From NCBI GenBank assembly GCA_024516035.1, contig CM044958.1, forward strand, positions 27,249,755 through 27,313,754: a stretch of 64,000 nt of DNA, given 5' to 3'. Shown here one piece after another: positions 19,389 through 51,100 of this stretch (its first letter is position 1; every line of letters begins with the position of its first letter). The position numbers were made by a program, and so were the translations under genes. The notes under the pieces are model-generated. The model saw only the letters and a program-made list of their open reading frames with translations, had not been told where the DNA came from and made no database searches. Source of the DNA: Bactericera cockerelli. Lineage: Eukaryota > Arthropoda > Insecta > Hemiptera > Triozidae.

Positions 19389-22300
19389 GTAAGTAATTCT
19401 TAACTTTTATTATTTTACGGTGGCTTTTGTTTGTTGTGTCTGGCAAGTCAGCCTTTGCACCTATAGTCTACTTACCAGATATATCAAAGCTGCTTTAACC
19501 CTACACGGGGTACTTTCACATTACTTTTATAATTTTCTTTTAAAAAAAACACATTGAAAAGTAGGTATAAGTAATAGGTAAAAAAAGTAGGTATATAAGT
19601 AAAAGAAAAGTAGGTATACCTATATCTACTCTAGATTTAGACCAGATTATTTATTTTATTATAGGTACCTATTATTTTATTATAGGACTTTCACTATAAG
19701 TTTTACATTTAAAGAAACAAAATATACAAAAAAATATTTGAAGGGTTCAAGAAAACAATTTGCTCGCTCTTTTTTTTCCTTCAATTTTGAAGTTTTGGAA
19801 TGTTTAGTAGGCGTACTATCATTTCTGATGACTAAACTGGCATAAATCTTACTGAGATCCAAGATACTCACAGGTAAAAATAAGTCATTGGACTGGCATA
19901 AATCTAACTGAGATCCAAGATATTCACAGGGAAAAATTATTCATCCTTGCTGGGAAGAACTTCCAGGTCTCATCTAATCAGGTGAAATAAATGCTAAGGA
20001 AATACAAAATGGACTGGCACTCGACCGTCTTGTGTGTGGGAGAGACGCTCTAATTTTACTAAAGAAATATACCCAGGTAATTTCCGGTTTTTCTATAGCT
20101 ATCATCGAGGAGATTAACTGGAGGCCATACGTACGCTAGAACACACTCTAAATCAAACCAAGTTTTTGAGCGCGAAGAGAAATTTGGAGCTCATAACTAT
20201 CATCCTATCCCAGTGGCTCTCAGTAAAGGAAAAGGTTAGTTCACAACGAAGTTATTGGCTACCTTGCTACCAATTACAAATCAAAATGCTGTTATACGTT
20301 GGACGTTAGTGAACATTGGTGTCGGTGCCACGCAGTTTCGTCTTGCATCAACGCACAGACCTTTATAATAGATCACTTGCAAATGAAAAAATACACTGCC
20401 AATCATGGACACAATACTTCCTCGTGAATGGTAATAAAAAAATTATTTAATATCGCTAGAATAAGAGACCGTAATGAAAGGTCTTGATGTCCTCATATTA
20501 AGAGTATAAATACCTGCAGTAATTTAGATAATAAAAGTCAAATTAATTAATTTGAAAAGTAAACTGTCTACTTAAATGGCGGGTTATCGGCTACGGCAAA
20601 CTCTTGTATTTTAGACAATTTATGTTCAACTATTTTACAAAAAAAAAAAAAAAAAAATACGAACTTGACTTGAAAATTGAATTAGATTTTTTTCAAGATT
20701 CTTAATCTACAAAGAATTTTTTTTTAAGAATCAAGAACGTTTTTTTGGAGTTTAACTTTCTGATAATTGGACCATAATTTTCAGGGATTTATGTCTGGGA
20801 CGTGGAAGGGAAACAATATTTCGACTTTCTCAGTGGCTACTCAGCCGTCAACCAAGGTCATTGCCACCCCAGAATCATCCATGCTCTCAAAAGCCAGGCA
20901 GAAGTTCTGACCCTAGCCTCGAGAGCCTTCTACACGGATGTTCTCGGAGAGTACGAAGAGTATGTCACCAGTTACTTCGGCTACGATAAGCTTCTTCCGA
21001 TGAACACAGGTCTGCTTGATTACCTACTTAAATGATTGATGTCAGTACTGGTACATAGATAGGTGTTTGTACAATTGTACATAGATAGGTCAGTAGGTAC
21101 ATAGATAAGTTAGATAGATAGTTGTTTGAAGTAACAGTCATTATGGGGTATTGGACAGTTTGGGTTTCGTTTGTCTGTCTGTTCCACGATAACTCCCGAC
21201 CGGTATCTTCAAAATTCTTGAAATTTAGTATACATACTCATTGATATTTTTACTTTCTATTATCTATAAGGTATTGAAAGTATTGTTTTAGGTCGGAAAT
21301 TGAGCTGATAACATTATTGGACGAATTAGAATCTCCTGATTTCAAAAAAGTAATTTTTATCAAATGGTCCGTTCGGATGTATGTATATTTTTTTTGCATT
21401 GGCATTGGGGCAAAAATAACCCCATACAGCCAGCTAATTTATGTATACAGGGTCCGCCAAAAAAAAAGAAGTTACTCGAAATATCTAGAGAACGGATTAA
21501 AATTTTAAAAAATGCTGAAACACATGTGTGATATATCGAGTGGGAAAACTTTTCTACTAGGTTCTGATTTTTTATCATTACCAGGGGGCGGGCCCAAGGG
21601 GGTCAACTTTGGATTCAAACTATTTGTAATACATTTCTGAAAAGTAGTTGATATTAAAAGTATTTTAAGACAAGTTTCATTATGAAGTTTCAGTTTTGAA
21701 AATGTAGGCATTTCATGATCAAAGGCGGATCTACCTATGGTGATAACTGAGTGAGTTATTGTTTTGACGTTGTTATATAGGTGTACACTGTACATATCTT
21801 ATAATTTATATAATCAGATTTAAAAAAATAATTCTTATCCAGGAGTGGAAGGGGGCGAGACAGCTTGCAAGATTGCCCGGAAGTGGGCGTACGAGAAGAA
21901 AGGCGTGGCCAAGAATCAGGCGAAAATCATTTTTGCCGGCGGAAACTTCTGGGGTCGAACCCTGGCTGCTGTGTCATCCTCCACGGACCCCGAGTGCTAT
22001 GAGGGATTCGGACCCTACATGCTTGGTCTTTGAGATCGGAATTCCCTAGAGTGAGTCTGGAAGCTTTAGAGGTGAGTCATTTCAGTGTAGGATCTTAAAG
22101 GCTACTTATTTCCATTCCCTATGATGATCTGGAAGCTTTAGAGGTGAGTCATTTCAGTGTAGGATCTTAAAGGCTACTTATTTCCATTCCCTATTATGAT
22201 CTGGAAGCTTTAGAGATGAGTCATTTCAGTAAAGGATCCTATAGGCTACTTATTTCCATTCCCTATGATGATCTGGAAGCTTTAGAGGTGAGTCATTTCA

Positions 22301-24685
22301 GTGTAGGATCCTAAAGGCTACTTAGTTCTATTCCCTATGATGATCTGGAAGCTTTAGAGGTGAGTCATTTCAGTGAAGAATCCTATAGGCTATAGGCTAC
22401 TTATTAGGCAATCCCAACGACAACAAAAATGTCCCTTTCCGTAACTAGGTAGGAATATCACACGTGAAGATTCTGGTTCAAAAACCATGCATGTTATTTT
22501 TTGAAATTTTTCACTGTAAAAAATGGTCCATTGTACGATACAAGTTTTCGAAAGAAAAAAAAATGTGATACATAATTACAATACTGGGAAACATTTTTAC
22601 GCTGAAAAATGGTTCTAGGAGACAGTAGGATTAAAAAAAATATTGGACAACCAGGCTGGAGACAACATATATGATTTCTTAGCTACCTTTAAAACCAACG
22701 GTTCAGATTACAAAACAAATTATATCAAGTTTTATTTACAATAAACTGTGTATATGTATATACATTACAAATATAAAGTAGAAATTATGAACAATACTAG
22801 ATCAAGGACGGTGCTAATACCTACGGCATTCTCTCTTCTATTGCTTATACAGATTATTTAAGCAACTTTTCATGTGTACAGACAGCACTACAAGATCCAA
22901 ACACAGCAGCCTTCATGATGGAGCCTATCCAGGGAGAAGCAGGTGTAGTGATCCCCCGCCCTGGCTACCTGCAGGCTGTCAGACGGCTGTGCAGCCGTCA
23001 CAACGTGTTGTGGATAGCAGACGAGGTGCAGACCGGGCTGTGTCGGACAGGGAGGCTGCTGGCTTGCGACTACGAGGCTGTGAGGCCGGATATTTTGATC
23101 CTGGGTAAAGCACTCTCTGGGGGCGTCTATCCCGTAAGTTAGATCTTCTTTATTTGTTCACAAACACGTATTTCTATAAAATAGCGTTACTTATTGTAGA
23201 TAGAAGGGTAGAAATTAAATTGTTAATTTTTGGAGATTCATAAATACCCGTACTTCGTAATACACCGGATAATTGTTCTCATTATCACCAAATTCCAAAT
23301 ATTGATTAACCTGGGATATCAAAAAATATTCGACCCAACTGGATTTTTTTTTTTTTTTTTTTAAGAAATAATTTTGGCTGAAGCAAATGAGATTAATGTT
23401 TATCTTGCTTTGTCACATCACATGCTAATCAGGTGCAAAGTCGTATTATATCACAAGGTTTTTCCCCTTGGAAATCCAGAGAAAACACTTGCTGCATTAC
23501 TCCTCTGAATTGCAATAACAATCTTTGCGCGAGACAACTGGAAATTGTACCTGTTATTCTTGGTTTCCCCGAAGCAAATAAATTCTAAATGCCAAAGACT
23601 CTTACTCTGATACTTGTGTTAGAGATGGACGAATATTGCCTGTCCCGGTAGCTCAGTGGTAAAGGCGGCACTCTGTGAACCAAGAGAATCCAGATGTCGT
23701 GGGTTCGAAACCCAGCCGGGACATGACAAGTTATCCTCCCATTTGGGATTTTCACCACATAATTATATGTCTTGGGCTTACTGCTGGAATAATGGGACTT
23801 TAATAGTCTTAATCGGGCAGTATAAATAAGGCGATATTATTATTATTCTTCCCCAGGTCTCCGGGGTGCTTGCCGATGACGCGATCATGCTTTGCATCAA
23901 ACCAGGGCAGCACGGGTCCACATTCGGCGGCAACCCCCTCGCCTGTAAGGTGGCCAGGGCGGCTCTAGACGTGCTCAGAGACGAGGGACTGGCGGCCAAT
24001 GCCACCTCCATGGGGGAGCTGCTGCGAGCAGGGCTGTCCAGCCAGCTTTCCAAGGATGTGGTGAAGGAAGTTAGAGGAAAGGGACTGCTCAATGCTATTG
24101 TTGTGTCAGAAGGTAAAACGGGTGTTGCATAATCATATTAATCATGTTTAACTTGAAGGGATTTCTTTTGCATTGTGTTCTCCAGCTCCTATATCAGCTG
24201 TTTTTCTATAATTGTAAAATCATGTAAGATATTAAAGACCCAAATCAAATAACACTCTTAAGTGAAAGGTAACCACCAGGCGAGGTAAATGCTCTAAGCA
24301 TTTTCTACCACCTAACCCTAAGAGTCTGATTATTATGTGGTCACAAACTCAAATTAATGAGGAAAAATTCGTGCACTGGGTGGGATTCGAACCAACGGAT
24401 CCCTCCGCTACCTGGATTACTAGACTAGCGCGTTAACCACTTGAATACCAGTGCACATGCCATTATTTGATCCTTATGAGCCAAAATCTCAAATACAGCT
24501 GATTACTTTCTCTATCTACAGAATTCAACGCCTGGACCATCTGCCTTAAGCTCAAAGAGAATGGACTTCTAGCAAAACCTACGCACGGGGACATCATTCG
24601 CCTCTCTCCTCCTCTAGTCATTACAGAATCACAGACTCTACAAGCTGTGGACATCATAAAGAAAACTTTTGCTCAAATCAAATAG
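19350..24685 (+). CDS. Oat: Ornithine aminotransferase, mitochondrial (seven exons)
   Basis: Class III PLP-dependent transaminase. It moves the delta-amino group of ornithine to 2-oxoglutarate, giving glutamate semialdehyde/P5C, in the mitochondrial matrix. Exons are 19350-19388, 20099-20234, 20785-21009, 21843-22071, 22882-23133, 23857-24112 and 24522-24685. The N-terminus ([20 protein letters not shown]) is basic, hydroxylated and free of acids, like a matrix-targeting peptide. [20 protein letters not shown] opens the mature enzyme. [25 protein letters not shown] (cofactor Asp), LGKALSGG (Schiff-base Lys) and [11 protein letters not shown] are all present, and the tail [16 protein letters not shown] ends near the usual length (about 431 residues after correcting exon 4). 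Every splice phase fits except the end of exon 4, where net +5 bases and stops break the frame beside a 5-copy tandem repeat. This is a damaged allele or an assembly error rather than a clear pseudogene. Confidence 0.95.
19836..19947 (+). repeat. 56-bp tandem duplication in Oat intron 1
   Basis: ACTGGCATAAATCT(T/A)ACTGAGATCCAAGATA occurs at 19836 and 19892, followed in each copy by TTCACAGGGAAAAA-like sequence. The two copies differ by a few bases. Confidence 0.8.
20099..20234 (+). CDS. Oat: Oat exon 2: leader end and mature N-terminus
   Basis: The acceptor is TTTTTCTATAG. It reads [20 protein letters not shown], then [20 protein letters not shown]. The [14 protein letters not shown] block matches the OAT family. 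It ends in phase 1. Confidence 0.93.
20785..21009 (+). CDS. Oat: Oat exon 3: N-terminal catalytic segment
   Basis: It reads [20 protein letters not shown], then [20 protein letters not shown] and [20 protein letters not shown], ending LPMNTG. This is close to family consensus. Confidence 0.95.
21447..21800 (+). mobile_element. MITE fragment (CAGGGTCCGCC end) in Oat intron 3
   Basis: CAGGGTCCGCCAAAAAAAAA, then CTCGAAATATCTAGAGAACG and GGGGGTCAACTTTGGATTC. It matches one arm of the element at 40461-41021; the opposite end is not clear. Confidence 0.6.
21843..22071 (+). CDS. Oat: Oat exon 4: cofactor-domain segment with broken 3' end
   Basis: It reads [20 protein letters not shown], then [20 protein letters not shown] and [14 protein letters not shown]. 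The family would continue with a PGF(D/E)IIPY(D/N)DL-type block. Here an extra C after GGT brings a TGA into frame, a TAG follows, and the net change is +5 bases before the donor TTAGAG/GTGAGT. Intact versions of the lost codons ([10 protein letters not shown]) occur in the downstream repeat copies. Confidence 0.85.
22041..22402 (+). repeat. Oat: Five 72-bp tandem copies spanning the Oat exon 4 splice donor
   Basis: The word TCTGGAAGCTTTAGAG starts at 22056, 22128, 22200, 22272 and 22344, exactly 72 bp apart. Each copy holds about 30 exon bases and about 42 intron bases. Copies 2, 4 and 5 read ATTCCCTATGATGATCTGGA with donor GAG/GTGAGT. Copy 3 has a mutated donor (GAG/ATGAGT). Copy 1, joined to the exon, is corrupted at the position of TATGATGA. 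Confidence 0.95.
22882..23133 (+). CDS. Oat: Oat exon 5: PLP-binding core
   Basis: It reads [20 protein letters not shown], then [40 protein letters not shown] and [14 protein letters not shown]. It holds the cofactor Asp (IADE) and the catalytic Lys (LGKALSGG). It is phase 0 at both ends. Confidence 0.96.
23638..23850 (+). mobile_element. tRNA-SINE family A copy in Oat intron 5
   Basis: TGTCCCGGTAGCTCAGTGGT (A box), GGGTTCGAAACCC (B box) and a 7-bp acceptor-stem-like pairing GTCCCGG/CCGGGAC. The body ATGACAAGTTATCCTCCCAT and tail GGGACTTTAATAGTCTTAAT end in ATTATTATTATT. It sits against the Oat exon 6 acceptor. Confidence 0.85.
23857..24112 (+). CDS. Oat: Oat exon 6: substrate-binding and C-terminal domain
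   Basis: It reads [20 protein letters not shown], then [20 protein letters not shown] and [18 protein letters not shown]. Its acceptor (ATTATTCTTCCCCAG) is supplied largely by the tail of an upstream SINE. Confidence 0.95.
24245..24461 (-). mobile_element. tRNA-SINE family F copy in Oat intron 6
   Basis: On - the head TGCACTGGTATTCAAGTGGT and B box GGTTCGAATCCCACCCAGTG are followed by the body, hairpin AATGC-TTAGA-GCATT and CTCGCCTGGTGGTTACC. It ends 60 bp before Oat exon 7. Confidence 0.8.
24522..24685 (+). CDS. Oat: Oat exon 7: C-terminus
   Basis: It reads [20 protein letters not shown], then [20 protein letters not shown] and ends FAQIK with TAG, aligned with the family C-terminus. Confidence 0.95.
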
Positions 24686-26690: not shown

Positions 26691-26941
26691 TAGAGAGAAA
26701 ATACTCTACCAGTTATAGACACAATACTTCCTCGTGAATAGTTTATATCGTATCTACTTTCACTTTGCTTTTTCTCAAACCTACTTGGTGTTGGCATTGT
26801 TTAACTTCATGGTTGAGGTTGAATAACGGGAATTTTACACTCCATTCGATGGAAATTGTACCAGCTACGCACATTACACTCACCCAGCCTGGGTAGGGTG
26901 AGTGTACGATTACACCACATCGTATACAGTTGGCGCTAAAA

Positions 26942-27781: not shown

Positions 27782-30700
27782 CTGAAACAAAGTGTTAAAA
27801 ATTCACATGTACTAAACATGAATGAATTTACATACATACGTGAGATGTGTGGAATAAACACATGTTAGATTTATTATTGTGATAACTATAGTAAGAAATT
27901 AAAATCTCATTTTCTTCTTCCGTAGATAGCCACTGACCGAAAAAAATTTAAGAACATAAATAAAAGAGAGTAAATTGTAAAGATGTTAATTGACACAAGA
28001 CAACAATATATTAATTACATCCCCCAAAAAACACTTCGTGTAAAAATAGTCGTCAAGTGTTAGAATGATTAAAAAGAACTGATATCAAAAACGTCAATTT
28101 TCTATGTTTGAAGGAAAATTTTTTTTCACGTAATAAGTCTCTTGATAATTCAACCAAAATAATAGCCTCACAACAACAATACACTTTTGAGCAAACTTCG
28201 ATTTGGTATTTTGAGAATTTAACCAAAAAATAGCCACACAACAAAACAATGCTCTTGTAAGAACAATCTGCATAATTACATAACCACGTCCTTGACTACT
28301 GCACACTGTTTTGTTAGCAACGTACTTCACATAAATTTCAGAACAAAACAGTGTGCAGTCAAGGACGTGGTTCTGTAATTATGCAAGATTGTTCTTACAA
28401 GAGCATTGTTTTGTTGTGTGGCTATTTTTTGGTTAAATTCTCAAAATACCAAATCGAAGTTTGCTCAAAAGTGTATTGTTGTTGTGAGGCTATTATTTTG
28501 GTTGAATTATCAAGAGACTTATTACGTGAAAAAAAATTTTCCTTCAAACATAGAAAATTGACGTTTTTGATATCAGTTCTTTTTAATCATTCTAACACTT
28601 GACGACTATTTTTACACGAAGTGTTTTTTGGGGATATCACTACTTTTTGATTTAATTGATTTTCATATGATAGATTAAATAAAAACTGGTCAACAATCAA
28701 CAGATAAAAGAAAAAGAACTTTTAATTAGAGGATGTATATCTTTTAATTCAAAGAGAAAAAAAAAATGATAGAAAAAAAGATACTGAAAAAATATTTCAC
28801 GGTACTTTCTAGAGAGAGGAGAAATCTTGAGATAACAGGTGTATTCCTTTTTGAGTGGCACTAGATAGCGCTCAGCAATTTTGTTGATCTTTTCAAATTT
28901 TGAAACCCACTGCTAGATTCATTAACAGAAAATTACCCCGTTTCAGTATTGTTGGCAATAATTAGAGATGGGTGATACCGAGTATTTCATAGAACCGGTA
29001 CTTCAGTAATCGATTACATAAAAATACTGAGTATTTACCGAGGTTCTTTTGTACTTGGTTTTTGAGATTCTGCGAGCGGATGTAAATGGAATAGTGGATT
29101 CGAGTAATCACTCAAGAACCAAGTACAAAAGCACCGTACACTAACTAAATCTCACAATTTTGCATTCAGAATGTTTACAGGAGACGAATCTCGATTCACA
29201 AAATTTGTTGGGTGTTTTAGTTTCAAGTGTTTCAATAGATTAGAAGTTCCACCTCCTATTTTATAACCTGAATTAAATAATGTACATTTCCCTAAACCGT
29301 CCAATTGTTTGACAAAGAAGTTTCAAATAGAAGACTTGTTTCTACGAGACAAAAAGAAAAATATTAGGACACCGACAGCCTGAATATTATTCATAGATAA
29401 TATCGGAATGATGAAGTACCTCTCTCTGCTGTACCCAGTTCTAGAGATGGGTATTTGGGTATTATTGTAATACCGATTATTTCATAGAACCGGTACCCAG
29501 TATGGTACCCGGCCCCGGCGTGTAATACCAAGTATTTAATAAAAACAGTACCCGCCTACTACTTACGATACGTCGGTTTCGGTCCCAGTGTGTAATACCG
29601 AGTATTTCATAAAATCGGTACCCAGTACGGTATGCGGATCCAGTGTGTTATACCGTCACCAGTGTTGTACCCGGTACGGGTACAGGTACCTAGCAAAATT
29701 TTGTACCCGGTATGGGTACGGGTACCTAATTTTATTATGTTCCCGGTGCGGGTACTTTTGTAAATGTACCCGGTATTTTTTTTGGGTACTTTTCGGGTAC
29801 GTTATCCTTATCTATAGTAAGTATAGTAATAAGATTTGTCTAAATTATTTTAACTGTGGAGGACAAAGTCTTGTCATTAGAATACCTCCTAACAACCAAA
29901 CTAAATAAAATACCAAATTGATGGTTATCCTTTAATGAGGTCTTGAACTCGAAGTTCCAGGTTAAAAGTCTAGTAAGCTAGATTTTATTTTTATTTAAAA
30001 TTACTATTAATGTAATATTATTATTATCATCATCATCATAACAATCAAGAAATAAAAAGATACATTTTTTAAAAATAAGGCTTGTATCTTTTTAATTTAA
30101 GTATGAATTTGTGAACAAAAATAACTAGAATGTAGAAAAAATAGTATTCTATCATATAAAACAAATTTGAAGGAAATCGGTTAAGCGGTTTTGAAGATAC
30201 AAGTGATTTAGTCGAAAAAATCAAAATTGCCAGGTGTATGCAATGTGAAACAATCACGAGGAAGTTATGTGTCCATAATTAGCAGTGTTTTTTTATTTAT
30301 ATTTATAATGTAGGTACATATTTGTAAATTTTGAATGAGATCTATGTAATTTACGATTCATAATACAAAAGCATTGATCAAAATAAATGCTTTATTTAGA
30401 CTGTCAGTTGTCAGTGGCCAGCCTCCGTGGCGTAATGGTTGAAACTACTGCCCGTAGTTCAGACATTTCGAGTTCGATTCCCAGTTGTTCCAGACTTTTC
30501 TAATATTTTCTTCCTCTCTAAACACGTGAGTCTGGAATCTACCCAGGCTGGGCGAGTTTAATGTAGGTAGCTAGAACGATTCCCAGCGAATAGAGGGTAA
30601 AACCCCCCGTCCTGACTAGTTCAAATCAGGACGTTAAAACCAAATAAAATCAACTGGTCACAATCGTTTTAAAATGAGGTTCGTGTGATAATTGGTGCTT

Positions 30701-33700: not shown

Positions 33701-36700
33701 ATTAAAGATATGGAAAAGTAAGTCCTATAATTCTGCGCTACCCACTAAAATTGTGATATAATAACTCAAAAAACACATTATTATTATAACTTAAAATTAT
33801 TTCCTTGTTACAGTTATTTCAATTTGAATGCCACCACTGGTCGCTACTCATAAAAGTAAAATTTCTGTATAAACCCACCTGACTCGAGAGGTGTGTAGTC
33901 CCCTGCATCGCTCAGCGTAGAGGCCTCACTGGCTATGGTTCTGACAGGCAGGAGGGGTGAGGTCAATGACTCTTGGGAGAGGTGAGCTAGGGGTGACAGG
34001 AACCCCGCAGGGTGACCACCCACCTGTGCTTCCTGAACAGGAAAAAACATACAGTAGCCAATAGTAAGTAGATCAAGTTAGAAAGTTAAGTTTGGTCAGT
34101 CCTCTCCACTCGATAGGTCTCAGTAGCTAGCAAATTGAGACCCTAATAGCGCACCCACACACACACACACACACAAGGACCATTTGAGAAAAATCACTTT
34201 TTTGGAATCAGGAGAATCTAATTCGTCCAGAAATGCTATCACGTTATCAGCTCAATTTCGAAAATCCCGACCGAAAACAATACTTTATACGTGAATACTA
34301 GGCAGTTTTCATTTAGTAAATATTACAATGAATGAAGAAATAATGAATAAGAGCATATTCTGTTTACCTTGCAGTCAGCCTGTCTGGGTTCCAGCAGGAC
34401 ACGGAACAGAGTGAGCGTGGGTACATTGTCCAGCACCCCCTGACCCAGCCCACGCGCATCGTCCTGGTTCAATCTCCTGTCCTGGATCACCTGCATACCC
34501 AACCATAAGATACCGAATAGTACGTTTAGAGAACACATAGAAAAGAAAAATACTGTTAAAAAGAGAGACAGACAGTACAAAGCAATGGGAAATATTTATG
34601 GGAAACGAACAATATATAAAATGACCATTGACCATGTATGTACATTGTACCTGCATTATTATAAATACCTATGACCTAACAATATAAAATAAAATTCAGA
34701 TTTAACAGCTACAGTTTCAAATGACCATGCAGTTGAAAGCGACGTTTAAAAAAAGATCTTTTCTACCATAGATGATTCAAATGCAAATAAAGAATCATTA
34801 TTAATTCAATAAACAAAAAACTCGTATAAATTTTAAAAAGAAATCAAGAAAATAATAACAACTGGAATATACTCCTTGGAAAACTTCAAGGATGACTTAT
34901 TGACTTAAAGAAACTCTTATAAATTTAATAGAGTTTAAAGTGGTTGGATGGAAGAGCTTAAACTTGAGAATTGTGCAACGGTACAGAAAGCCAAAATTGC
35001 GATTTTTTTACGATTACGAAATTAACTCAATTTTTAAAGACCGTTGTCTCTTCCTCCTTATGCAAGGAGACAAATTGGGATGTCCAAAGACAAGGGAGAT
35101 GTTCTTCAATCTACTCGATCCCTTTAAAAAAAAAAAAAAAAACAATTCTCTTCTTGAGAAGAAGAAACATTACCTCTATCTGGCCGGGCTGCAGACTTGC
35201 GACCCCCAGGGACTGTGCGGAGAGTAGACTCAGCCGCCACGTCGGGTCCTCTATGTAGGCGGCACAGGGCATGGGGTAGAAGTTGCCCTGGAGGGGTATC
35301 TTGTCCAGGTGTCTGCGCTTCACCATCTGGGAAGGAAGGAAGGAATGTATTTTATTTCATTTCACATTTTGTTTCATTAAAATCCCCTTGAAGTACAATA
35401 CCTGTTGTACTTTTAGGGGGTTCGAGTTCGAGAGAACAGGTAATCACTAACAGGTAAAGCGTCTGTCCCGGTAGCTCAGTGGTAAAGGCGGCACTCTGCG
35501 GGGGGAACTTCACGATTCGGCCCAAATAACCTGAGGAGACCTTTTCCATAGCATGATTCGTCCCAAAACACACTATCAAGTTTTGATCCCACACAAAAAC
35601 TCCCACTTTCATTCTAACAAAAAGTCCCACTTTCATTCCACCAAAAAATCCCTATAAAATAGTATGGAAACGTTGCCCTGAAAGAACTGAGAACAATGGC
35701 GATGTTCACGATGTTATTGTTTTGAACTAGTAACAGTCATCTTTGTTTCAGTGTTTATTTGAGTGTTTGACAGTAGGGTTAGATAGAAGGCCATGCCTCA
35801 AGAATATAGTAGGGTTAGGTAAAATACATAGAAGGCCATGCCTCAAGAATATAGTACGGTTAGGTAAAATACATAGAAGGCCATGCCTCAAGAATATAGT
35901 AGGGTTAGGGATAATACATAGAAGCAATGCCTTAGGTTTATAGTAGGGTTAGGTAAAATACATAGAAGGCCATGCCTCAAGAATATAGTAGGCTTAGGTA
36001 AAATACATAGTAAGCCATGCCTAATACATAGAAGGCCAAAGCCTGATATACCTACATAGAAGGAAATTCCGTAATTTAATGTTGAATAATAAAAAATCCC
36101 TCAATATGTACGGTACTTAGAATGTTGCACTGGGCCGAATCGTTCGGTGACCTTTTTTACCTGAAATCGAAACCTTTTTCATAAACCTTTTGGGCCGAAT
36201 CGTAATGCGCCCACTCTGTGAATCCAAAGACACTGCTGGAATAATGGGACTTTAATAGTCTTACCCGACCTCAGTAGCTGGATCGACAAGGCGGCGGACT
36301 TGTAACTTGGAGGTCGGTGGTTCAAGTCCCGGTTTTCAGCGTAGATTTAGTAAAGCGAGTTTGAGTAGTTGTGATATCACAAAATTGATTAACACAAATA
36401 TGATACTTTAATAGTCTTAATCGGGCAGTATTAATAAGGTGATATTATTATTATTCTTTCTTTTTATACCAAAAGTAGTCACGGAAGTCGAGTGAGTTAA
36501 CGCGCTAGGCATTGCACTCCTGGAAACCTGGGTTCGATCGCCAGCGGAGCATGAAATTTTCTACTCTGTACTTGGATGTTCGGGGTCCAATTTTACCTCG
36601 TGAGGAAAAATGAGTAGGTCGTTCGATGTGAGCAACTACCAATGGCGGAATTATGGGGAAAAATAAGGTGTTGAAATATTCATGAAAAAGGAAAAAGTCA

Positions 36701-39700
36701 CATAATTCTGCCCTACCCACTAAAATTGTCATATAATAACACCAAGAAACAATAATTTGCACAATGCAAGCTAGAGTGTGCATTTTGAAAGACAAATATA
36801 TGGAACTGGAAAGGTACAAATTGGGACATTCTCGGGTTAGCAGAAATACGCAGGAACTACGACTCCTTTACTGATTTAAAAATGGGAATATATTTTGCCA
36901 TACAGCAGCAATTAAAAGCAATATGAGGGTTGGATTCTTCATTAAAAAGAAATGGGGCACAAATATTAGAGAATTCAAAGCAATTTCAGAGAGAATGGCA
37001 TTGTTAAAAATTGAAATAAATGAAAAAAAATACCAATACTGGAAATTTTCGGAAGTAAAACATAACAACTTTGTATAATAGTTTCTTTTACCTGATAACC
37101 ATTTAGGTCTGTATAGAAGACATCCTCATTCTTAATATTAGTTGATAGTCTCATAGCAAGCTCTGTGTTGACCGTTTGTTCGGATGTCCAGTAGATTTTC
37201 TATGTTAATACCTAGAGAAAAGGATATGTAACATTAAAAATAATTTTACAACTGGTATGGTATCGACGGAGTAGTTCAAACTCTCTATTAGGTTCAGTGT
37301 TAACTAATGCACTGTGGGGTTGCTGAAGAGCTAGAAACATATTACCTAGATGTGTTGTTGTTGTTGTTGTTGTTGTAGCCAGCTTCGCTACAGCTGGAGG
37401 GGTGATGATGGTCTCCAGCCAACTTTATTTCAAAGTTGGCTCGTCCTGAACCACATATTTCTATGTGCGATCAACCATCATGAGGACTTGGACTTTTCTT
37501 TATAAGCCATTAAACCCTTAGGGAACTGCAAGGGTTGGGTTGGCTAGTCTGTTACAACAACCCTTACAAGCCAACCTGGCTTGTAAGGGTTGGCTAGTCT
37601 GTTCTCTGTTTATAGTCCTCTAGCGGACACTGGTCTTCTCCCTGTTTAACGTCCCCCAGCCAGACAAACATTACCTAGATCATCGCTGTCGGCTACATGG
37701 TTCACATTACCTAGATCATCACTGTCGGCTACATGGTTCACATTACCTAGATCATCGCTGTCGGCTACATGGTTCACATTACCTAGATCATCACTGTCGG
37801 CTACATGGTTCACATTACCTAGGATCATCACTGTCGGCCACATGGTTCACATTACCTAGATCATCGCTGTCGGCTACATGGTTCACATTACCTAGATCAT
37901 CGCTGTCGGCTACATGGTTCACATTACCTAGATCATCGCTGTCGGCTACATGGTTCACATTACCTAGATCATCGCTGTCGCTACATGGTTCACATTACCT
38001 AGATCATCGCTGTCGGCTACATGGTTCACATTACCTAGATCATCGCTGTCGGCTACATGGTTCACATTACCTAGATCATCGCTGTCGGCTACATGGTTCA
38101 CATTACCTAGATCATCGCTGTCGGCTACATGGTTCACATTACCTAGATCATCGCTGTCGGCTACATGGTTCACATTACCTAGATCATCACTGTCGGCCAC
38201 ATGGTTCACATTACCTAGATCATCGCTGTCGGCTACATGGTTCACATTACCTAGATCATCGCTGTCGGCCACATGGTTCACATTACCTAGATCATCACTG
38301 TCGGCTACATGGTTCACATTACCTAGATCATCACTGTCGGCTACATGGTTCACATTACCTAGATCATCACTGTCGGCTACATGGTTCACATTACCTAGAT
38401 CATCACTGTCGGCCACATGGTTCACATTACCTAGATCATCACTGTCGGCTACATGGTTCACATTACCTAGATCATCACTGTCGGCCACATGGTTTCACAT
38501 TACCTAGATCATCACTGTCGGCTACATGGTTCACATTACCTAGATCATCACTGTCGGCTACATGGTTCACAATGACGGAGTGGGGTCACATGGGCAGTTG
38601 CACGATGACCAAACTGAGCAGAGGTCCCTGCACCAAGACCACGGGGCTGTTGTCTGCGGACACTGCCTTGGCCTGGCCTCGGGGGAGGAACAGGTAGGCG
38701 CCGCTCATCTCCTTGCCCACCCGGACGCGTACGTCACGAAGTTGAGGTTGATGGCGTGGTCACCTTGGACTCTTGTCTGTGATGCTCTTCAGGAAACCTG
38801 AAGCAAAAAAAGAAATCACATTGGCATTTTACACTTTCATTATTATAGGAAATTCCTGTTGCCAGCCTCCGTGGCGTAACGGTTGTGACTACTGCCCGTA
38901 GTCCAAAGATCCTGAGTTCGATTCCCGGTTGGAGCAGACTTTTCGCACAGAAAATTCTGTTCCATCCGAACATATGAGGCTGGCAATTCCGGCCCTACCC
39001 AGGCTGGGTGAGGTTAATGTGGGTAGCTGGTAACGATTCCCAGCGAATGGAGGGTAAAACCCCCGTCCTATCTACCTCAAGTCAGGACGGTAAAACCAAA
39101 TAGAATCAATGGACATGAAAGGAGCCTAGAAATTGGATCTGGGCGTCCATATAATCCTCTCACCACCGTGATTTAGGTATCAATACCTACCTCACGGACA
39201 CGGAATTATTATTAGGAAATTCCTGGAAACCAAAAAAGAAAAAAAAAATACTATTTTGGTGAAGCATGTTGTTTGACAGTACGACTGTTAACATCCCTTT
39301 TTTCATGTCATCATGCTATGAATACTACCAAAAGTAATTTTTTGCACAGTCAAAAATGAAATTCAGAAAGTACATTTGAGAGGAGGATTTGCAGCTTTGT
39401 AAATGAGCAAATGTCAAATTCAATATGATTACTTATGAATTGTACTTAGGAACTAGTACTTATGACTTGTACTTGGAACTATCAAGTACTTATCACTTGT
39501 ACTTAGGCACTATCAAGTACTTATGACTTGTACTTGGGAACTATCAAGTACTTATGAATTATACTTGGGAACTATAAAGTACTTATGACTTGTACATGGA
39601 TCTATCAAGTACTTGGGAACTATCAAGTACTCATGACTTGTACATAGCACTATCAAGTACTTATGTCTTGTCCTTAGAAACTATCAAGTACTTATGACTT

Positions 39701-39813
39701 GTACTTTGGAACTGTCAAGTTCTCAAGTTCTACAAGTATGATTTGTACTTGGGAACTATCAAGTACTTATGACTTGTACTGGGAACTATTAAGAGTATTA
39801 AGTACTTATGACT

Positions 39814-39866
<53 letters not shown>

Positions 39867-42800
39867 AGACATATACACACAAACGCAAATCATTTATAAA
39901 TTAGATTCTTCTAAGATTTTTGAAGTTAAGCTGCGTCCAGCAAGTTTAATACTTGGTGGATGATACACCCAGGTTTGAATCATCATTATTGGGAAGTGTG
40001 GTCTTTCATTTAGCTCATTTAACAGTCAGGATATTGCTTACCTTTATCGTTGAAGGAGACGGACATCTTACTGGTCTGAAGATTAAAGTGCTTTAGAGGT
40101 CCATTAGTGATGTACGAGGGAAAAATCTGCTTGAGCTGATGATTAGGATGATGTTGACTATTGTACACTTTCATCTCAGAAATGTTGTCTGAAATAGTGG
40201 TAACGGAATTTTTTTGATTTAAAGAAAACATAGCACATTATACTAACAGTATAATCAAAATTCAAGTCAGCATTAACAGGATCTAAATCTCATGATCAAA
40301 AAATCTTTTATAGAACAAAGCTATACTTGAAGTATTTCCTCTCTCATTTTTTTCCTACTTGTGTCCTTCAATAATAATATAATATTCTCTCAATGACAAA
40401 AGTAGTCTTTTGACTTACTACTAACTAATATTATACAGCCGAAATGATTAATATAATATACAGGGTCTGCCAAAAACAAGGAGCCACTTGAAATATGTTG
40501 AGTACGAATTTAAAATTTGAAAAATGCTACAACACGTGTACCATTATATCAAAGGGGAAACCTTCTCTACTAGGTTTTGATTTTTTGACCACGGGGGGTT
40601 GACCCCTTGACACCTGTTCTGGTAAAGCTAATGGTATCAAAATTGCATGAAATTTTAATTATTTCAAATGGAAAAACACGTGTTTAACAGTTTTACAAAA
40701 ATATACATAATAATTTCTTTAAAAAAATAACTGAAACCTCTGAAATGAAACATACGACATCTCCAGCCCTACGATAATTTGATTAAAAATCTCAAACTTG
40801 TCTTATATTATTTTCAAGGTCAACCACTTTTCAAAAATGTGTTACAAACAGGGTAGTTCTATTTAAGATTCCTAAGTTGACCCCCCTGGGGCCGCCCCTG
40901 GTAATTTTGTAGAAAAGGTTTCTTATTTGATAATATGTATAATGGTACATGTGTTTTAGCATTTTTCAAAAATTAAATTGGTTCTCCAGATATTTCGAGT
41001 GGTTTCTTTTTTGGAGGACCGTATGTGCAGATTTTAATACATAACTCGAAATATTGGTAAAGAAATTCAATTTTAGATAGTGGAGTAACATAAATGTGTC
41101 CATGATTTTAAGAACCTTGATGAGATTTGATACTCACGGGCCTTGGTTCGATTCCCAGTGTAACTCAAACAATAACTTCGCAGTTGGAAAGGGCCCATTT
41201 TGGCTACGAAAAATAATCGGTAGCATGGCGCTAGCCCAGTAGCAGTGACACATACCGGTACCACTTGAGATACCACAGGTTCAGACCCTACCAAGCTAAC
41301 TGCAACCTGAAAATGTAAACAATAAACAGGTAGTATGAAACCAATACCTTGAATCGTCTGGCTAGCTCTTAATTATTTTAAGCATTCTAGTGACGGGCCA
41401 TGTTTTAGCCCCTATAAAAAAATCATAACGACCTATCTAAAAATGGAACCAAATAGATTATTTGTAAAAATTCATTCAATTAAGTCAATTCATAGAAGCT
41501 TTAATTTAAACATTGTATGGCGATAAGTCGGCCTAAGAGACCAGAATAACTTTGGAACATAACTGCTAAAGATTCGTCATTTACCTGTGCTGAAGTAACG
41601 CGCACACTGACCAGCTCTTTACGTTCCCATGACAACGGATTGAAGAGAACTACTCTCTTGGCGCAGACTTGGTTATCATCAGGTCCTATCTCTATGACTT
41701 CGTCATTGTTCGGGAATTTTCGTAGACTTGAGACATTGCCCGATCCAGGAGGGTTGGACTCGTGACCCCCGACGATTGGCTTGTAGTTGCTTGTTGAGTC
41801 TGGAGCGAGGAGTACCTTGTGGGGAAAATTGATTGGAAAACAATTTTGTTAAAATTGAAGTAAAACCACTAACATTTTTAAGTGTTATCTTATGGGAAAA
41901 GTTTAATCTATTCCCTCATCTACTGTATTTATGGAGTTAGATGCCATTCTTTGTCGAGCGGCAGGGGACTTGTAAAAATAATTCAGAAAAATAATATCTG
42001 GAGAACCACTAAGTTAAATCAAAAGTATTATAGAACATTAATGGTTGGAAATGATTTGTACTACCACTCCTTAAGAGATTTTACATCAAGTCTTTACATC
42101 CTCTACAGAGATAATCACATAAAACATTTCATTTCACTTTACTTGTTTATTTTCTGTGTCCATGATAATAATTGTGTCATGGTGGTGGAGGGTATTAATC
42201 CATATGGACGTCCAGAAGAAATTCTCTGGGGTCCTTCCGTGTCCTGTGTGTATTGTATTGTTGCTCATCTATACCATGTAGTCAAAATATTTCTTGAAAT
42301 TCGGAATAAAAGTAGGAGTTTCAGGAGATTTGAAATCGTTTAAATCAGGATAAAACGACTTGATTTTGTTTCAAATATATAAAATGATTAGTGTGTATGT
42401 GTATGAGTCATAAGTTAAATAACTAGATAGTTCCCAAGTACAAGTCATAAGTACTTTATAGTTCCAAGTATAATTCATAAATACTTGATAGTTCCCAAGT
42501 ACAAGTCATAAGTACTTGATAGTGCCTAAGTACAAGTGATAAGTACTTGATAGTTCCCAAGTACAAGTCCCTAAGTACTAGTTCCTAAGTACAATTCATA
42601 AGTAATTATATTGAATTTGACATTTGCTCATTACCTGGGCAGAGAGATTCAAGACCCGACGTAGAGACAGGATGGCGCTCCACATCTTGAGTGCATAGTC
42701 CTGCACCACATGATCCTTGGCAGTGCCGGTGACCCCGTCATGGTGCTGGAAGAGGGAGAGGGATGCGCGCGCATCGGACAAGGCAGGGAGGCATCCTGCG

Positions 42801-45800
42801 AGCAGAGAGGGCCAGTCATTCTTGTGAGGACTCGACGTCGAACGTAAAAAACAGTGATTTCTAGTTATTTAACAGTTTGAGCCCCAGTGCTGGAATCGGC
42901 GATGTATGAGTGTTGGAACCCAACACTCATACATTGTTCCCAAGGACCACTAGAACCTATTCCCTATGAGAAACACATAGAAACGAATACCATAGAGAGT
43001 GCTCATGTCTTCAAAGTAAGGAAGGTCGTGAATACCATATAGAGTACTCTAGTCCACAGTCAAATTTCGGGTAAGAGTCATATATGGTATTCATGGGCTC
43101 AAAGTGTTAACAAGGCAACTTCGAGCGAGGATGTTTAGGGGATTCAAAGCATTCTACTTCCACGAGACCCTAGGCTGATATTTTTCCAATTTCTGGGTAT
43201 CTCCGCTTTTGGCAACGTTGGAATTCGTAATAAGCGACCCAAAAAACATATGGGTACCAAAATGCAAAAAAAAACGCATAAACTTTCCTAAACAGGGTCC
43301 TTTGTTTGCTCAGGGGATTACACTAGTAAGCATACCGCTTACATTCAACTCCCGGTGGTGGAAGGATTATTAAAGGCGCTCAGATCCAACGTCTACACCA
43401 TGTCAACTGATTCTATTTTGGTTTAATATCCTTGTAAGAGTTATTCCTATCACGTTATAATTATTATAATAATAATATCGTTTTTGTCACTTTTCAGATG
43501 ACGATAGAATTGATATTGATACACGAAATCAAACATACCTGACGCATGGAGTAGCCAATCCCTGCTTACATCACTTCCCCGCCAGGCTAGGGTGAACAAC
43601 AAATCAGCTGCACGGAGTAGACCGCTCAATTCTCTATCCATTCTCTTGTAAAAGGGACGCGAAGTGTAGTACCTGCAAAAAGATGTAGAAATCATGGAAT
43701 TTTATAGTTCGATAGAAATTTCAGAAGGGTAAAAGAATAAAAAAATAAATAGTAGTTAAAGTAATTAATATGAGAGGGGAAACAAAAGTTATTCGAAATA
43801 AATTAAAATAGCATTGTGAGTAAAATAACGCATTGGCGATCGTTGGTTAAGGCTGGAATTTTTAATTATTATTAAATTGTAAATACTTACCTATGAAATA
43901 AAGGAGACCTATTTGACTGCTGGAATAAAGGGACTTTTCAGTCTTACCTGACCAATATAAACAAGGTATAGTCTATTATATTCTAAAAAAAATTCAAGAC
44001 TACATAATAATGACACCAAAATAAAGTCTTACCAGGGTAGTATGACTGAGTGTCCATTACTATTAAATTACGTTAGATTAGACGACAATTTCCAAGAGTA
44101 TCCTTTACTGTAAATTTTGAATTCACTACAAATGGTTACTTTCTATCTCAAGCTTCACAAATATAAAAGTAAGTAATGTGAATACATCCTTAAATACTGA
44201 ACTGATGGATGTTTTCTTTGTACATTTCCAGATAATCCTAAAAGGTATTTGCTTTTGCAAGAAACTTGGAGGAACAAAGTTTCTGCATAGAATTTTTCAT
44301 AGCCCTTCTCACCCACTCCAGTAGTTGTCATCCTTGTCGGCATAGGTGAAAAAATCCCCGGACAAGCTTGGGAAACTCCTCTCGTCTTTCGACTTCCGCA
44401 GCGTGTCGAAATAGTCGGCCAATGTTCCAAACGAGGCGTGCACATTGAGCGACGCCCGTGAGTTCATGTAGGCGAACAGCTTCTCGTAGTTGATCATCTG
44501 GGAGTCCCACTCTGCAAGGTTCTCGTAGCGAAAGTCATCTCCCAGGGGAACCAGCAGGACTCGGGTTCCATACAGGGAGGCTTTCTTCCGCCACTGATCC
44601 AGGAGCATCTCCGCTCTGGAAACAGATACCGCCGTTGCTTTCATTACAAACAACAATAATAATAATAATAGTCTGGCTGGGGCACGTTTTCCAAGGGTTT
44701 AAAGGATTATAAAGAAAAGGACCAAGTTCTCACGATGGTTGATTGCATATAGAAATACATACAGCGTTCGCCATTTAAACGGATTTAAATTTTGAAAAAT
44801 GCTTGAAAATGTGTGACATTATATCAAAGAGAAACATTTTCTATTGGGTTTTTTACTTTCCTTATCCTAAAGAAATTAAACTAATGGAATCACCCAAAAT
44901 TTTCGATAGTCAGTTTTCAGTGCCAAAACACGTTTTAGGGTACCCAAAGGCATAATCCAAGTTTCTGCTATTGGTCCGTGTGTCTACCTGTCGGTCTCAA
45001 TTTAAGATATCTTGAAAACCGGGCCAGAGACTAGGACTGCACACAAGTTTTAGCATTTTTTACAATAAATTAAAGTAAATGAAAAGAATATAGGTGCTAC
45101 TAATCATAACCAATACTTGGTCTCACCTGTGCGCCACCTTATTATCTAAGATGAAAAGAATCAAGATGCTACTAATCATAACCAATACTTGGTCTCACCT
45201 GTGCGCCACATTATTATCTAAGATGAAAAGAATCAAGATGCTACTAATCATAACCAATACTTTGGGTTGAGTGGAAGAGATTGCCACAGGCAATAATCCC
45301 GCCCTTTAGGTAGGACATTATTGTTATTTTCTTTTTTACTTATTTATTTTGTCATTTGTTTGTTTTTCTTTCTCTTAATTTTATACTGTTACCATTGTAC
45401 TTTGTCCTCCTAATAAAGCTTAAAAAAAAAAAAATACTTGGTCTCACCTGTGCGCCACATTATTGTCCGTGATGACCTGAGGCTGGATGCCCCAGGGGCA
45501 GGTCAGGCGGAAGTGAGGCAGCCGCTTGAAGTCGAACTGGCAGCAGACGCTGGGGTCCGGGCCACAGGTGTGCGGCACGTCATAGCTGTAGAACGGCATC
45601 ATGTGCGTGAGGAGGTCAGTGCTGCCGCTGTTATCTGGCCCAAGAGACAAAACCGATTTATTTTCTGTTTGATTGCCAAGGATGACAATAATAATAATAA
45701 TAAAAGCATACTCGCAGGGGTCAACCCAACCGAAGTGCAATGGAAGGGCCTCACCCTGGAGGAACCTCCTTCTTGATCAAGGTAGCCTCCACGCCAGGTA

Positions 45801-48076: not shown

Positions 48077-48125
<49 letters not shown>

Positions 48126-51100
48126 TGAGTAGTGTTTCACAGCCTTTTTTGTTTCGTAGCCATGAAACAGGAGCTACTGTAGACGCTTGTGGTCTGTGTT
48201 GTAGCCTGCCCATCCCGTAGTATGCCTCCCCTCTGATGGGCGAGAAGTGACAAAATACTTCCCATTTAGGTGCTGGGTCAACACGAGCGCACCGGAAGGT
48301 ATCCCTTACAAACAACTGTAACCAAATTTTGAATACAATTTTTTGCCGGCGCGGGGGTTCGAACCCGGGACCTTCCGCATGGCAAGCGAGTGCTTAACCA
48401 CTGATATGCCTTACTTACAGGCGCACTTTGTCTTTGATATCTTCATTGATATCCTTCCACCAGAGTGACAGGTATGACATTTCAGCCCAGATGAATTTTC
48501 TCTTCTCATTCTCTAGCAGTTTACATCGAGAAGTAAACAGTCATATACATAATTGTTTACTTCTCGATGGCAGTTTTCAAGCATATTTTTCTGAATTGTG
48601 TGAAATCTTTTCTTTTCATTTCTTGATTTTTTTTTAGTACAAGTTAACCTTGCACTCTGCCGCGCTGTCTCTTTCTATGTATAGGCGTTCTTCACAGCTC
48701 GGTCGAGGTGTTTGATTATGTATTCAGATGCTGAAATAGCAGATATGCATTTAGCATATCGCGCTGCCAACAGGAACACGAGGTGAGGTGTGCGTTTGTA
48801 AGAGGTGTCCTATTTCTAACGAAAGTAAATTTTATAAAGTAAAGCTGGGTAAATGTAGGTTGGTACTTCTATTATAAACGATACTAAGGTTTACAGTTCA
48901 CAGAACTACTAGTATAGATATAGATTTAATAACCCTTACTTACAGGCGCACTTTGTCTTTGATATCTTCATTGATATCCTTCCACCAGAGTGACAGGTAT
49001 GACATTTCAGCCCAGATGAATTTTCTCTTCTCATTCTCTAGCAGTTTAGTGACCATGGAGTCCAGAATACCCTTGGTGGACTGGGCGTAATAGGATTCAA
49101 AAGTGCTTTTCCAGCCTAAAAGTGAGGGCATCACATTAACATTGAACTAATTTATTTATTATTGAATGCCCAAGAATTTCATACAGGTAGAAAAAATTAT
49201 GAAATTGACAAAGCGATGAAGAATTTGTGTGACCAAGGATTTTACAAAACAATCAGTTTTTTTTTTTTTTTAATACACTGAGAAATTCATTATGAAGATG
49301 TGGCTTTGTTGAATTTTATTATCTGACCTGGTTGCTGGGTTTTCAAGTGAAAGTCGTACAATTAACACTGCGACCTAATTGGATCTATTGTGGACCTGAC
49401 TTTGTTGAATACTTGATCTAGAAAATGGAGATACTGCTAGTTTATTAACTTAAAATTAGTTCTCAATAATTATTTATTCTTAGATGCTAGCATTGTCTAG
49501 GCGAAAGTGAATTCTAGAAGGAAGTTGCAATGCAATTTATTAGAAAAGGCAGAGAGAAAGAACACATTTCGAAGCTAGTCAAGTATCAGAAGATAGACTG
49601 AATATATTTCCAGATTTTCATCATAATACAATCTGGCCAATATCTAGCCAATAAATTGAATTTTATGTCGACAACACCTTGAATACTAGTTCTCTTAAGA
49701 TTGCTGAAGCAACGTCCATCGTGGTTCGGACTTAAAAGATGACTTAAAATTCAAACTCTCGTCATGCTGGATATTTCCGATCCCACAGAGGTTTGTTGAT
49801 ATTATTGGCGATAAGTTTCCGGCGAATGGAGGGTAAAAATACTCTCTTAATATAATGTTTAGGAGATATTATCAAAAGAGAAAAAAATGTGACCATTACC
49901 TGGGTCATTATGAGAATGGGGCACAACAAAGACCCGCAGCAAGTTCTCTGGGTCAGTTTCATACTCCAAGTCAAGGGCTATATTCCAGCCTTGAGTCCAC
50001 TTGCCCCCGGCTATGTTCTCAAACTTGATCTCATCTGCATACACCTTGCCCATCTGTAACGAATGAGTCAAAAAGGTGTCAGAAATTTTCAGTAACCACC
50101 AGGCAAGGTTAATGCTCAAAGCATTTTCCTAACACCTAACCCTTGAAGTGTTATTTTGTGGTCACATACTTACATAAGTGAAGAAAAGTCAAAGCATTGG
50201 TTGGAATCGGATCCAGAGATCACGGATCTATGCGCTAGATTTTTTACATTACAAGTCTAGGGCCGCATCGAGTATCGACCACATGAGACAGAATAAAACA
50301 TAGATTAGAGAAAAACTCACCTGAACATCCACTTGAGGAGCGTGCAAGGAGACAGCAGGACATTGTCCATTGAAATCAAAGACTTTTCTTGCTGATGCTG
50401 CAGGTGTTATCTCCTGTTGAGTAGAACATAGGAATCAGGACTGGACCAAACTTCAATTACTAACAAGTGAGAACTTATAATGACCAATAGCCTTATCAGG
50501 TTGGTGCAGAGTTGGATGTTTCAAAAAAGATTATTTTTTTTGCTTATTATTCTGGTTTAGAGACCATTAAACACTTTCGCGTAATACCTTCTTAAAAATC
50601 TTCCAAAGATACTACCATTTAATTTAAAGAACATAATTTACCCTTGAGTAAATAGCTGAATCCACATGTGAAATCTGAAGAGCTTTACTACCAACAAGAA
50701 CAACAATGAAGGTTCGAAATAAAAATGCCAAACTTATTAGCAATAAAATGTATAGTATATTTCTTTTTATCACATAGTAAAGGAATCTTTTCATTGTCAT
50801 CAAAACTATAGTAGTTTGATAATATTCAGCTCTGAGATTAATTAAAATACACTGCCAAATATGGACACAATACTTCCTGTTTATGGTAATCAAAATTTTC
50901 AACTTTTTTTAGCTCTAGATACACAGAATTTTTACTGAATCACTTGTATTTACAAAAGTTCTCAACCGATTCTCTTCAATTTTGTTTTATATGGTAAAAT
51001 ATTTTGTTTTATCGACCTTATTTTTTGACTTTTTTGTCAAAAATTTCGGATTTTCTTCAATATCAGAGCTCAGTCAAAATTGATTAAAAAATAAATATAA

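What the first reader, a model, noticed from the sequence alone, without database searches (positions are those of the whole stretch)
22041..49048. Five independent duplications seeded at 5' splice sites in two neighbouring genes
Oat exon 4 (5 x 72 bp), mannosidase exon 7 (3 x 72 bp) and exon 14 (25 x 36 bp) each have tandem units holding the exon 3' end plus its donor. Exon 4 has a 115-bp direct copy that also crosses the donor, and the intron start after exon 10 is copied in inverted orientation. That is 5 of 27 Oat and mannosidase coding exons, always at the donor side. No exon acceptor is duplicated. All three tandem units contain AGGT, the junction that could act as both acceptor and donor, as proposed for intron gain by tandem duplication. 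A shared mechanism acting at splice donors (R-loop, spliceosome-linked damage or repair, or an unknown process) would be new. Chance is possible but looks unlikely.
Basis: partly seen in the sequence, partly recalled or inferred. Interest (0 to 1): 0.88.

Follow-up and report, generated by a model that had tools for sequence, protein, structure and literature searches.

The report
Tandem repeats seeded at exon edges
In this insect genome, probably a psyllid, short DNA repeats arise across the edges of exons more often than chance, clearly at the downstream edge and probably at the upstream edge too; this is known from single lancelet genes as "mirages" but is seen here across an insect genome.

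Summary
Three of the five reported duplications are real donor-spanning arrays: Oat exon 4 (72 bp x 4.9), mannosidase exon 7 (72 x 2.6) and exon 14 (36 x 25). A second copy of the mannosidase gene 236 kb away keeps the exon 7 and 14 arrays and has another, 34 bp x 9, across the exon 17 donor, where the window is single-copy. The other two are different things: the exon 4 copy lies in a 455-bp SINE insertion absent from the second copy, and the exon 10 case is an insertion landing 5 bp from a donor.

Genome-wide the pattern holds. Repeated perfect donors are 16 times commoner per motif than the reversed control (743/8137 against 25/4347). In 59 kinase exons, direct duplications cross 10 of 49 donors and 5 of 47 acceptors, against 1.7 and 1.9 expected. 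So acceptors are hit too (P 0.035); the donor lean is not significant (p = 0.26).

The arrays match amphioxus "mirages" (PMC3087553). I read them as local tandem duplications at edges of GC-rich exons, expanded by slippage and tolerated because the exon-proximal splice site still works. New are the insect host and the genome-wide scale.

The parts
22041..22392 (+). Oat exon 4 boundary array: 72-bp unit (30 nt exon end [10 protein letters not shown], then 42 nt of intron starting with donor GTGAGT), about 5 copies; first donor at 22072
   Evidence: TRF; exon end by psyllid OAT relatives; only one place in the genome
37668..38571 (-). Mannosidase exon 14 boundary array: 36-bp unit (31 nt exon + GTAAT), 25 copies; exon-proximal donor at 38539/38540
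   Evidence: TRF; also 25 copies in the second gene copy with a different order of unit variants; exon 14-15 junction
45079..45262 (-). Mannosidase exon 7 boundary array: 72-bp unit (17 nt exon + 55 nt intron), 2.6 copies beyond the retroposon
   Evidence: TRF; same array in the second copy
45264..45435 (+). Poly(A)-tailed retroposon, antisense to the gene, inserted in the exon-proximal copy of the exon 7 array
   Evidence: Sequence; shared by the second copy; same family by eye in the arrays of L043 and L090
45448..45636 (-). Mannosidase exon 7 with the exon-proximal donor (intron starts at 45447)
34368..34480 (-). Mannosidase exon 17: single-copy donor in the window; the second gene copy has a 34-bp x 9 array here
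48083..48539 (-). Insertion of about 455 bp: 39-bp poly-T, tRNA-type SINE, 115-bp copy of exon 4 end + donor (48409-48523), 16-bp fold-back
   Evidence: Empty site in the second copy; copy identity
48934..49048 (-). Source of the 115-bp copy (exon 4 3' part and donor)
42400..42633 (-). Insertion 5 bp after the exon 10 donor: inverted copy of the intron 13 array region about 39402-39800
38540..38786 (-). Mannosidase exon 14; carries 1-nt indels relative to the open second copy

Best explanation
These are exon-boundary minisatellites ('mirages'). In this genome, tandem duplications of about 20-85 bp arise preferentially across the edges of exons, at donors and, less surely, at acceptors, and more at GC-rich exons set in AT-rich introns. 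SHOWN: the boundary enrichment in the sample, different unit sequences at different loci, copy-number change between two copies of a locus, and an array present in one copy only (exon 17). INFERRED: the first step is a local duplication joined at little or no homology (replication slippage or microhomology end joining at the exon/intron step); the array then grows and shrinks by slippage or unequal exchange. INFERRED: the array persists because the copy next to the exon still supplies the working splice site, so the extra copies lie in the intron and mostly do no harm. Retroposons that land inside arrays, and SINE insertions with switched templates, separate and spread the copies further.
For:: CAGGTAAGT pairs 743 for 8137 single motifs against 25 for 4347 of the reversed control; exon-side flanks of eight of the ten C1 arrays in the listed part were read, two of them paralogues; six of the seven independent ones sit at a plausible coding-exon end, strongly so for the LDLR-like, RING-type and C1:27895031 exons; the seventh is a dispersed fragment; in 59 kinase exons, 10 of 49 donors and 5 of 47 acceptors are crossed, expected 1.7 and 1.9; second copies of two boundary-array loci keep them with other copy numbers (acceptor 7.0 against 3.0, donor 5.7 against 3.2; 7.9 against 2.0 + 4.2); exon 17 array in one copy only; exons with a donor or acceptor array are more GC-rich (0.595 in 13 against 0.512 in 36, p = 0.004, set sizes; window genes 4 against 19, p = 0.035); the Oat stretch occurs nowhere else.
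Against: Raw coverage of nearby intron by duplicated sequence is also high (3128 of 22604 positions, 13.8%, in the first 40 loci), so the enrichment shows only when seeds, not all copies, are counted; with a stricter 8-nt rule that call had 5 of 35 donors and 4 of 33 acceptors. Acceptor arrays are only modestly above chance (P = 0.035), and the one acceptor motif tried shows no excess (pairs 16 against 40), though that motif is a poor acceptor probe. The GC link is exploratory: acceptor arrays alone give p = 0.12, and some window exons without arrays are as rich in GC (0.60-0.64). No reads or RNA could be examined, so splicing past the arrays and copy numbers rest on the assembly. The duplication mechanism itself is inferred.
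Confidence: 0.72

Rival explanations
1. A splicing-linked mutational process acts specifically at 5' splice sites (for example R-loops or U1/spliceosome-associated breaks); acceptor arrays are a minor by-product.
For: Donor motif excess 16-fold per motif; kinase donors 10 of 49 against acceptors 5 of 47; the two window genes have 4 donor arrays (one in the second copy) and no acceptor array was found.
Against: Acceptor duplications exist (L067, L072, L079, L080, L087) and the donor/acceptor difference is not significant (p = 0.26). GC content is associated with arrays.
Confidence: 0.2
2. No mutational preference: duplications arise everywhere, and selection keeps those at exon edges, either because redundant splice sites buffer against nearby insertions or because one copy is conserved and the array stays recognisable longer.
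For: Retroposons sit between the exon-proximal copies and the rest of the array in several cases (exon 7, L043, L090), where a spare donor could matter; exon interiors are nearly free of duplications (60 of 7605 positions in 40 loci).
Against: The boundary arrays reported by TRF are mostly 90-100% identical, so longer recognisability should matter little (inference); introns were searched in the same way but seeds are rarer there.
Confidence: 0.15
3. Assembly artefact: collapsed or looped consensus around exons, for example from RNA-aided polishing.
For: The window copy carries small indels in exons 14 and 15 that the second copy lacks, and the assembly keeps near-identical second copies next to scaffold gaps.
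Against: Second copies, assembled separately, hold the same arrays with different copy number, unit variants or insertions; exon 17 differs between copies; arrays carry variant repeats, not exact loops.
Confidence: 0.06

Closest known systems
'Mirages': minisatellite-like tandem duplications of exon-intron boundaries in amphioxus (Adh3, globin, troponin C, PGBD5 genes; PMC3087553 and PMC3902484, passages read)
   Same: Repeat units span donor or acceptor boundaries; units of tens of base pairs (Adh3 10-72 bp); copy number differs between haplotypes (6 against 3 in BflGb6); many units carry AG/GT signals; mechanism reported as unclear.
   Different: Those are single genes of a cephalochordate. 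Here it is an insect (probably a psyllid), with about a fifth of sampled kinase donors and a tenth of acceptors affected, and a link to exon GC. Normal splicing was reported there from RT-PCR and is not testable here.
Internal tandem repeats at exon-intron boundaries of human genes in segmental duplications (PMC2812944, passages read)
   Same: Tandem repeats at exon-intron boundaries with variable copy number that can change exon-intron structure.
   Different: 27 curated intron modifications in recently duplicated human genes; no boundary hotspot claimed in the passages read.
[quoted passage not shown] PMC4974935, passages read)
   Same: Tandem duplication that includes AGGT or whole splice signals.
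   Different: There a new intron arises within an exon; here the copies lie in an existing intron and relatives' mannosidases are collinear at the exon 14-15 junction.

Membership tests
Mirages (exon-boundary minisatellites) | Tandem repeat unit spans an exon-intron boundary and carries its splice signal | tested here: met
   Oat e4, mannosidase e7, e14, e17; 10 of 49 donors, 5 of 47 acceptors; not all clean tandems
[quoted passage not shown]
   L067, L080 and L087 have duplications at both ends of one exon
Mirages (exon-boundary minisatellites) | Length instability between haplotypes or copies | tested here: met
   whether the second copies are alleles or paralogues is not settled
Mirages (exon-boundary minisatellites) | Regular splicing is not disturbed | not testable with these tools
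   No RNA data for this genome; only relatives' proteins show the normal junctions
Mirages (exon-boundary minisatellites) | Somatic instability (reported at amphioxus Adh3) | not testable with these tools
   No reads available
[quoted passage not shown]
   No extra coding segment between exons 14 and 15 in three psyllid-type proteins; relatives' gene structures were not available
Introners (intron-creating mobile elements) | The same sequence family inserted at many sites | tested here: not met
   Units differ between the loci seen; the Oat exon 4 stretch has one place in the genome; the other units were not searched one by one

The most novel reading that the evidence does not exclude
Exon edges in this insect lineage are genome-wide mutational hotspots for tandem duplication, driven by a process tied to splicing or transcription (or to the GC step at exon edges), so that thousands of genes carry fast-changing arrays of extra splice donors and acceptors. 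This would be a standing supply of raw material for alternative splicing, intron growth and intron gain.
Probability: 0.4. Interest if true: 0.85.

Novelty: new member of a known kind. Interest (0 to 1): 0.66.

Why it matters
Mirages were noted gene by gene in amphioxus, with the mechanism left open. A genome in which about a fifth of sampled exon donors carry such duplications turns the question of how they arise, and whether they feed intron gain or alternative splicing, into something that can be tested statistically and in populations. It also warns that gene models in such genomes contain tandem spare splice sites.

Tried and rejected
Rejected: exon 4 dispersed copy and exon 10 inverted copy as donor-seeded duplications. 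Internal 36-bp structure in the two 72-bp units: 10 of 36 identical in both, shuffle P 0.45 and 0.49, so the shared multiples of 36 are taken as coincidence. A weak idea kept only as a remark: the 36-nt exon 14 unit is open in the exon's frame and its two substitution-variant sites are synonymous, but indels break it in the window copy.

Weak probe: TTTTTGCAG as acceptor motif; singles 7793 against 16092 for its reverse, pairs 16 against 40. Two further motif searches (AAGGTGAGT pairs, TTTTCAGG pairs) did not complete. No second Oat copy was found. I looked by eye at the 14 most GC-rich ORFs per region outside the two genes and saw no obvious conserved gene; no profile search was run on them.

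Rows dropped: of 134 kinase matches I fetched 59 (20, 20, 19), mostly partial-domain exons, leaving out near-identical second copies and most matches with stops; a few come from one gene. Of the 59, 10 had no assignable donor and 12 no assignable acceptor (boundaries set by script and then set or corrected by eye for many loci). L102 (20-bp x 2.9 at the donor) and L088 (array starting at the donor) were not hits. L102 was counted as an array exon in the GC test, which used the 49 loci with a donor. Of ten C1 arrays listed, two were not fetched.
Full report
WHERE THIS IS. The window is C4:27249755-27313754 of a 565-Mb eukaryotic assembly. The mannosidase protein matches an unnamed product of a 3.6-kb contig at 83%, Cacopsylla melanoneura at 78% and Diaphorina citri at 77%, and Oat is closest to Cyamophila willieti at 80%; that these genera are psyllids is recalled. 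So the insect is a psyllid or close to one. Contigs C1 to C13 are 22 to 65 Mb long (lengths printed). That fits psyllid assemblies with 13 pseudo-chromosomes, and the size is near the 567 Mb given for Bactericera cockerelli (passages of PMC12203342). The species itself is not established. Oat is read on the + strand and an alpha-mannosidase 2-type gene on the - strand.

THE FIVE CASES. TRF confirms the Oat exon 4, mannosidase exon 7 and exon 14 arrays. A second copy of most of the mannosidase gene lies at C4:27513619-27541820. It is collinear, with aligned blocks of 90-99% identity, and next to a scaffold gap, so it is either an allelic contig kept in the scaffold or a segmental duplicate; I could not tell which. 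It is open where the window copy has single-base indels in exons 14 and 15. It shares the exon 7 array, including the retroposon inside it, and the exon 14 array with the same number of units but a different order of variants. It lacks the block of about 455 bp that contains the exon 4 copy; that block is a tRNA-type SINE with a poly(A) tract, the 115-bp exon copy and a 16-bp fold-back of the flank, as expected of an insertion completed by template switching (inference). It also lacks the exon 10 insertion, which is an inverted copy of intron 13 material that landed 5 bp after the donor; the second copy has instead its own SINE with a 15-bp target duplication near the same donor. Finally, it carries a fresh array of 34 bp x 9, with eight identical donor segments and a ninth variant one, across the exon 17 donor that is single-copy in the window.

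IS IT CHANCE IN THE WINDOW? Fifteen arrays with period 20 or more were placed at random against 24 donors and 24 acceptors, whose positions are good to a few bases. Counting the seed unit, three or more donor hits have P 0.0012 (whole window) to 0.0053 (gene interval); counting whole arrays, P is 0.07 to 0.24. Three to none for donors against acceptors has p = 0.25. A scan of these junctions found no acceptor crossed.

GENOME-WIDE BY MOTIF. Pairs of the perfect donor CAGGTAAGT with 9-39 bp between them: 295 + 448 = 743, against 19 + 6 = 25 for the reversed pattern. Single motifs: 8137 against 4347, so 9.1% against 0.58%, a ratio of 15.9. These are matches, not arrays; one array gives many. The listing is capped and shows ten arrays on C1; I looked at the exon side of eight of them, two being paralogues. 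Those at C1:45461062 (LDLR-type repeat protein), C1:31927709 (RING-type protein) and C1:27895031 follow clear coding exons. Those at C1:6910390, C1:43994033 and the paralogous pair at C1:29.18 and 29.31 Mb follow plausible ones. C1:45005276 is a dispersed fragment of the first. Family names here are read from the sequence by eye, not from a profile search. A further locus, C9:30607248 (L004), shows about 1 kb of donor-like repeats starting at a coding exon's donor, but it was found by a donor pattern. An acceptor motif, TTTTTGCAG, gives pairs 16 against 40 and singles 7793 against 16092. It shows no excess, but since it is not enriched over its reverse it hardly probes acceptors.

GENOME-WIDE BY EXON. 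To avoid choosing by motif I took 59 of 134 protein-kinase matches with about 350 bp on each side. Self-comparison found 33 duplication families. They cross 10 of 49 donors (L053, L056, L062, L067, L073, L080, L085, L087, L096, L097) and 5 of 47 acceptors (L067, L072, L079, L080, L087), with at least 5 nt on each side. Random placement of each family's unit within its own locus expects 1.7 and 1.9 (no donor count as high in 20000 trials; P 0.035 for acceptors). Donor against acceptor gives Fisher p = 0.26. The rates are 20% (95% interval 11-34%) and 11% (5-23%). A stricter rule of 8 nt on the first 40 loci gave 5 of 35 and 4 of 33. Not all hits are clean tandems: L062 is a copy about 300 bp away beside a tRNA-type SINE and L072 an acceptor copy 200 bp away, and L053 and L080 have donor arrays separated from the exon by other sequence. 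Counted as raw coverage, 13.8% of intron positions more than 60 nt from the exon also lie in duplicated sequence, and 0.8% of exon-interior positions; the boundary excess is therefore an excess of seeds.

INDEPENDENT COPIES. Second copies of four loci were fetched. Two of the four are loci with counted boundary arrays, and both keep them with changed numbers: L067/L091 acceptor 7.0 against 3.0 and donor 5.7 against 3.2; L056/L090 7.9 against 2.0 plus 4.2 units with a retroposon between. The other two, L070/L092 and L088/L093, keep their repeats next to the exon. This argues strongly against an assembly loop.

MECHANISM. Units differ between loci; the boundary arrays seen run from about 22 to 84 bp, and all 33 kinase families from 21 to 110 bp. 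AGGT is present in seven of nine units checked, absent from L067 and L080. Exons with a donor or acceptor array are richer in GC than those without (0.595 in 13 against 0.512 in 36, p = 0.004; donor arrays alone p = 0.011, acceptor arrays alone p = 0.12). The four array exons of the two window genes agree (0.55-0.61 against a mean of 0.50 in 19 others, p = 0.035), though some exons without arrays reach 0.60-0.64. Exons average 53% GC and flanks 34-37%. These are small exploratory tests. The reading I find most likely is local tandem duplication at the exon/intron step, favoured at GC-rich exons, followed by ordinary minisatellite turnover, with little harm because the exon-proximal splice site still works. 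The first cause (replication, transcription or splicing) is open.

WHAT IS KNOWN. Tandem duplications of exon-intron boundaries were named 'mirages' in amphioxus. The globin paper reports them at both boundary types, with haplotypes of 6 and 3 units, undisturbed RT-PCR products and unclear mechanism, and suggests that they may be general in cephalochordates (PMC3087553, passages). The PGBD5 paper adds troponin C and PGBD5 (PMC3902484, passage). Boundary repeats are also described in human segmental duplications (PMC2812944, passages), and intron gain by tandem duplication, with plant and yeast cases, in PMC4974935 (passages). Intronic minisatellites near exons are described in earthworm metallothionein genes (PMC12783039) and C. 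elegans (PMC4039745), but the passages I saw do not speak of units that cross exon edges. For reports of boundary arrays in psyllids or genome-wide I saw only listings: 20 of 101 papers, 13 of 13, 10 of 48, 8 of 8, 6 of 6; by title and start of abstract none reports them as a genome-wide or insect feature, within a library that lacks most subscription papers. I therefore file this as a new member of a known kind, with an unexpected host and scale.

Noticed in passing
window 28019-28655: A near-perfect inverted repeat with arms of about 300 bp; it also aligns in both orientations to the second region, like a fold-back element.
   Followed up: no
window 45264-45435; L043 about 1816-2006; L090 about 720-910: The same poly(A)-tailed retroposon family (by eye) sits antisense inside three different donor arrays, close to the exon. 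Chance, target preference or a role in array growth are all possible.
   Followed up: partly
window 37668-38571 and C4:27516990-27517892: The 36-nt exon 14 unit is open in the exon frame and its two substitution-variant sites (AGT/AGC, GTA/GTG) are synonymous; all 23 inner units split out in the second copy are 36 nt, so a 12-residue repeat could be made if a later donor were used.
   Followed up: partly
window 22028-22060, 38540-38786, 37092-37206: Small indels break the frame at Oat exon 4 (first array copy) and mannosidase exons 14 and 15; the second mannosidase copy is open, which suggests consensus errors or a decaying copy.
   Followed up: partly
C4:27460001-27580000 and several kinase matches: Several loci occur twice in the scaffolds at about 88-99% identity, as if allelic contigs had been kept.
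   Followed up: partly
L070 and L092: A TCTAT/TCTAC repeat of 300 bp or more forms the polypyrimidine tract right up to an acceptor.
   Followed up: no
C1:45005276: A two-unit fragment of the C1:45461062 donor array lies 456 kb away without its exon, so array pieces move.
   Followed up: no
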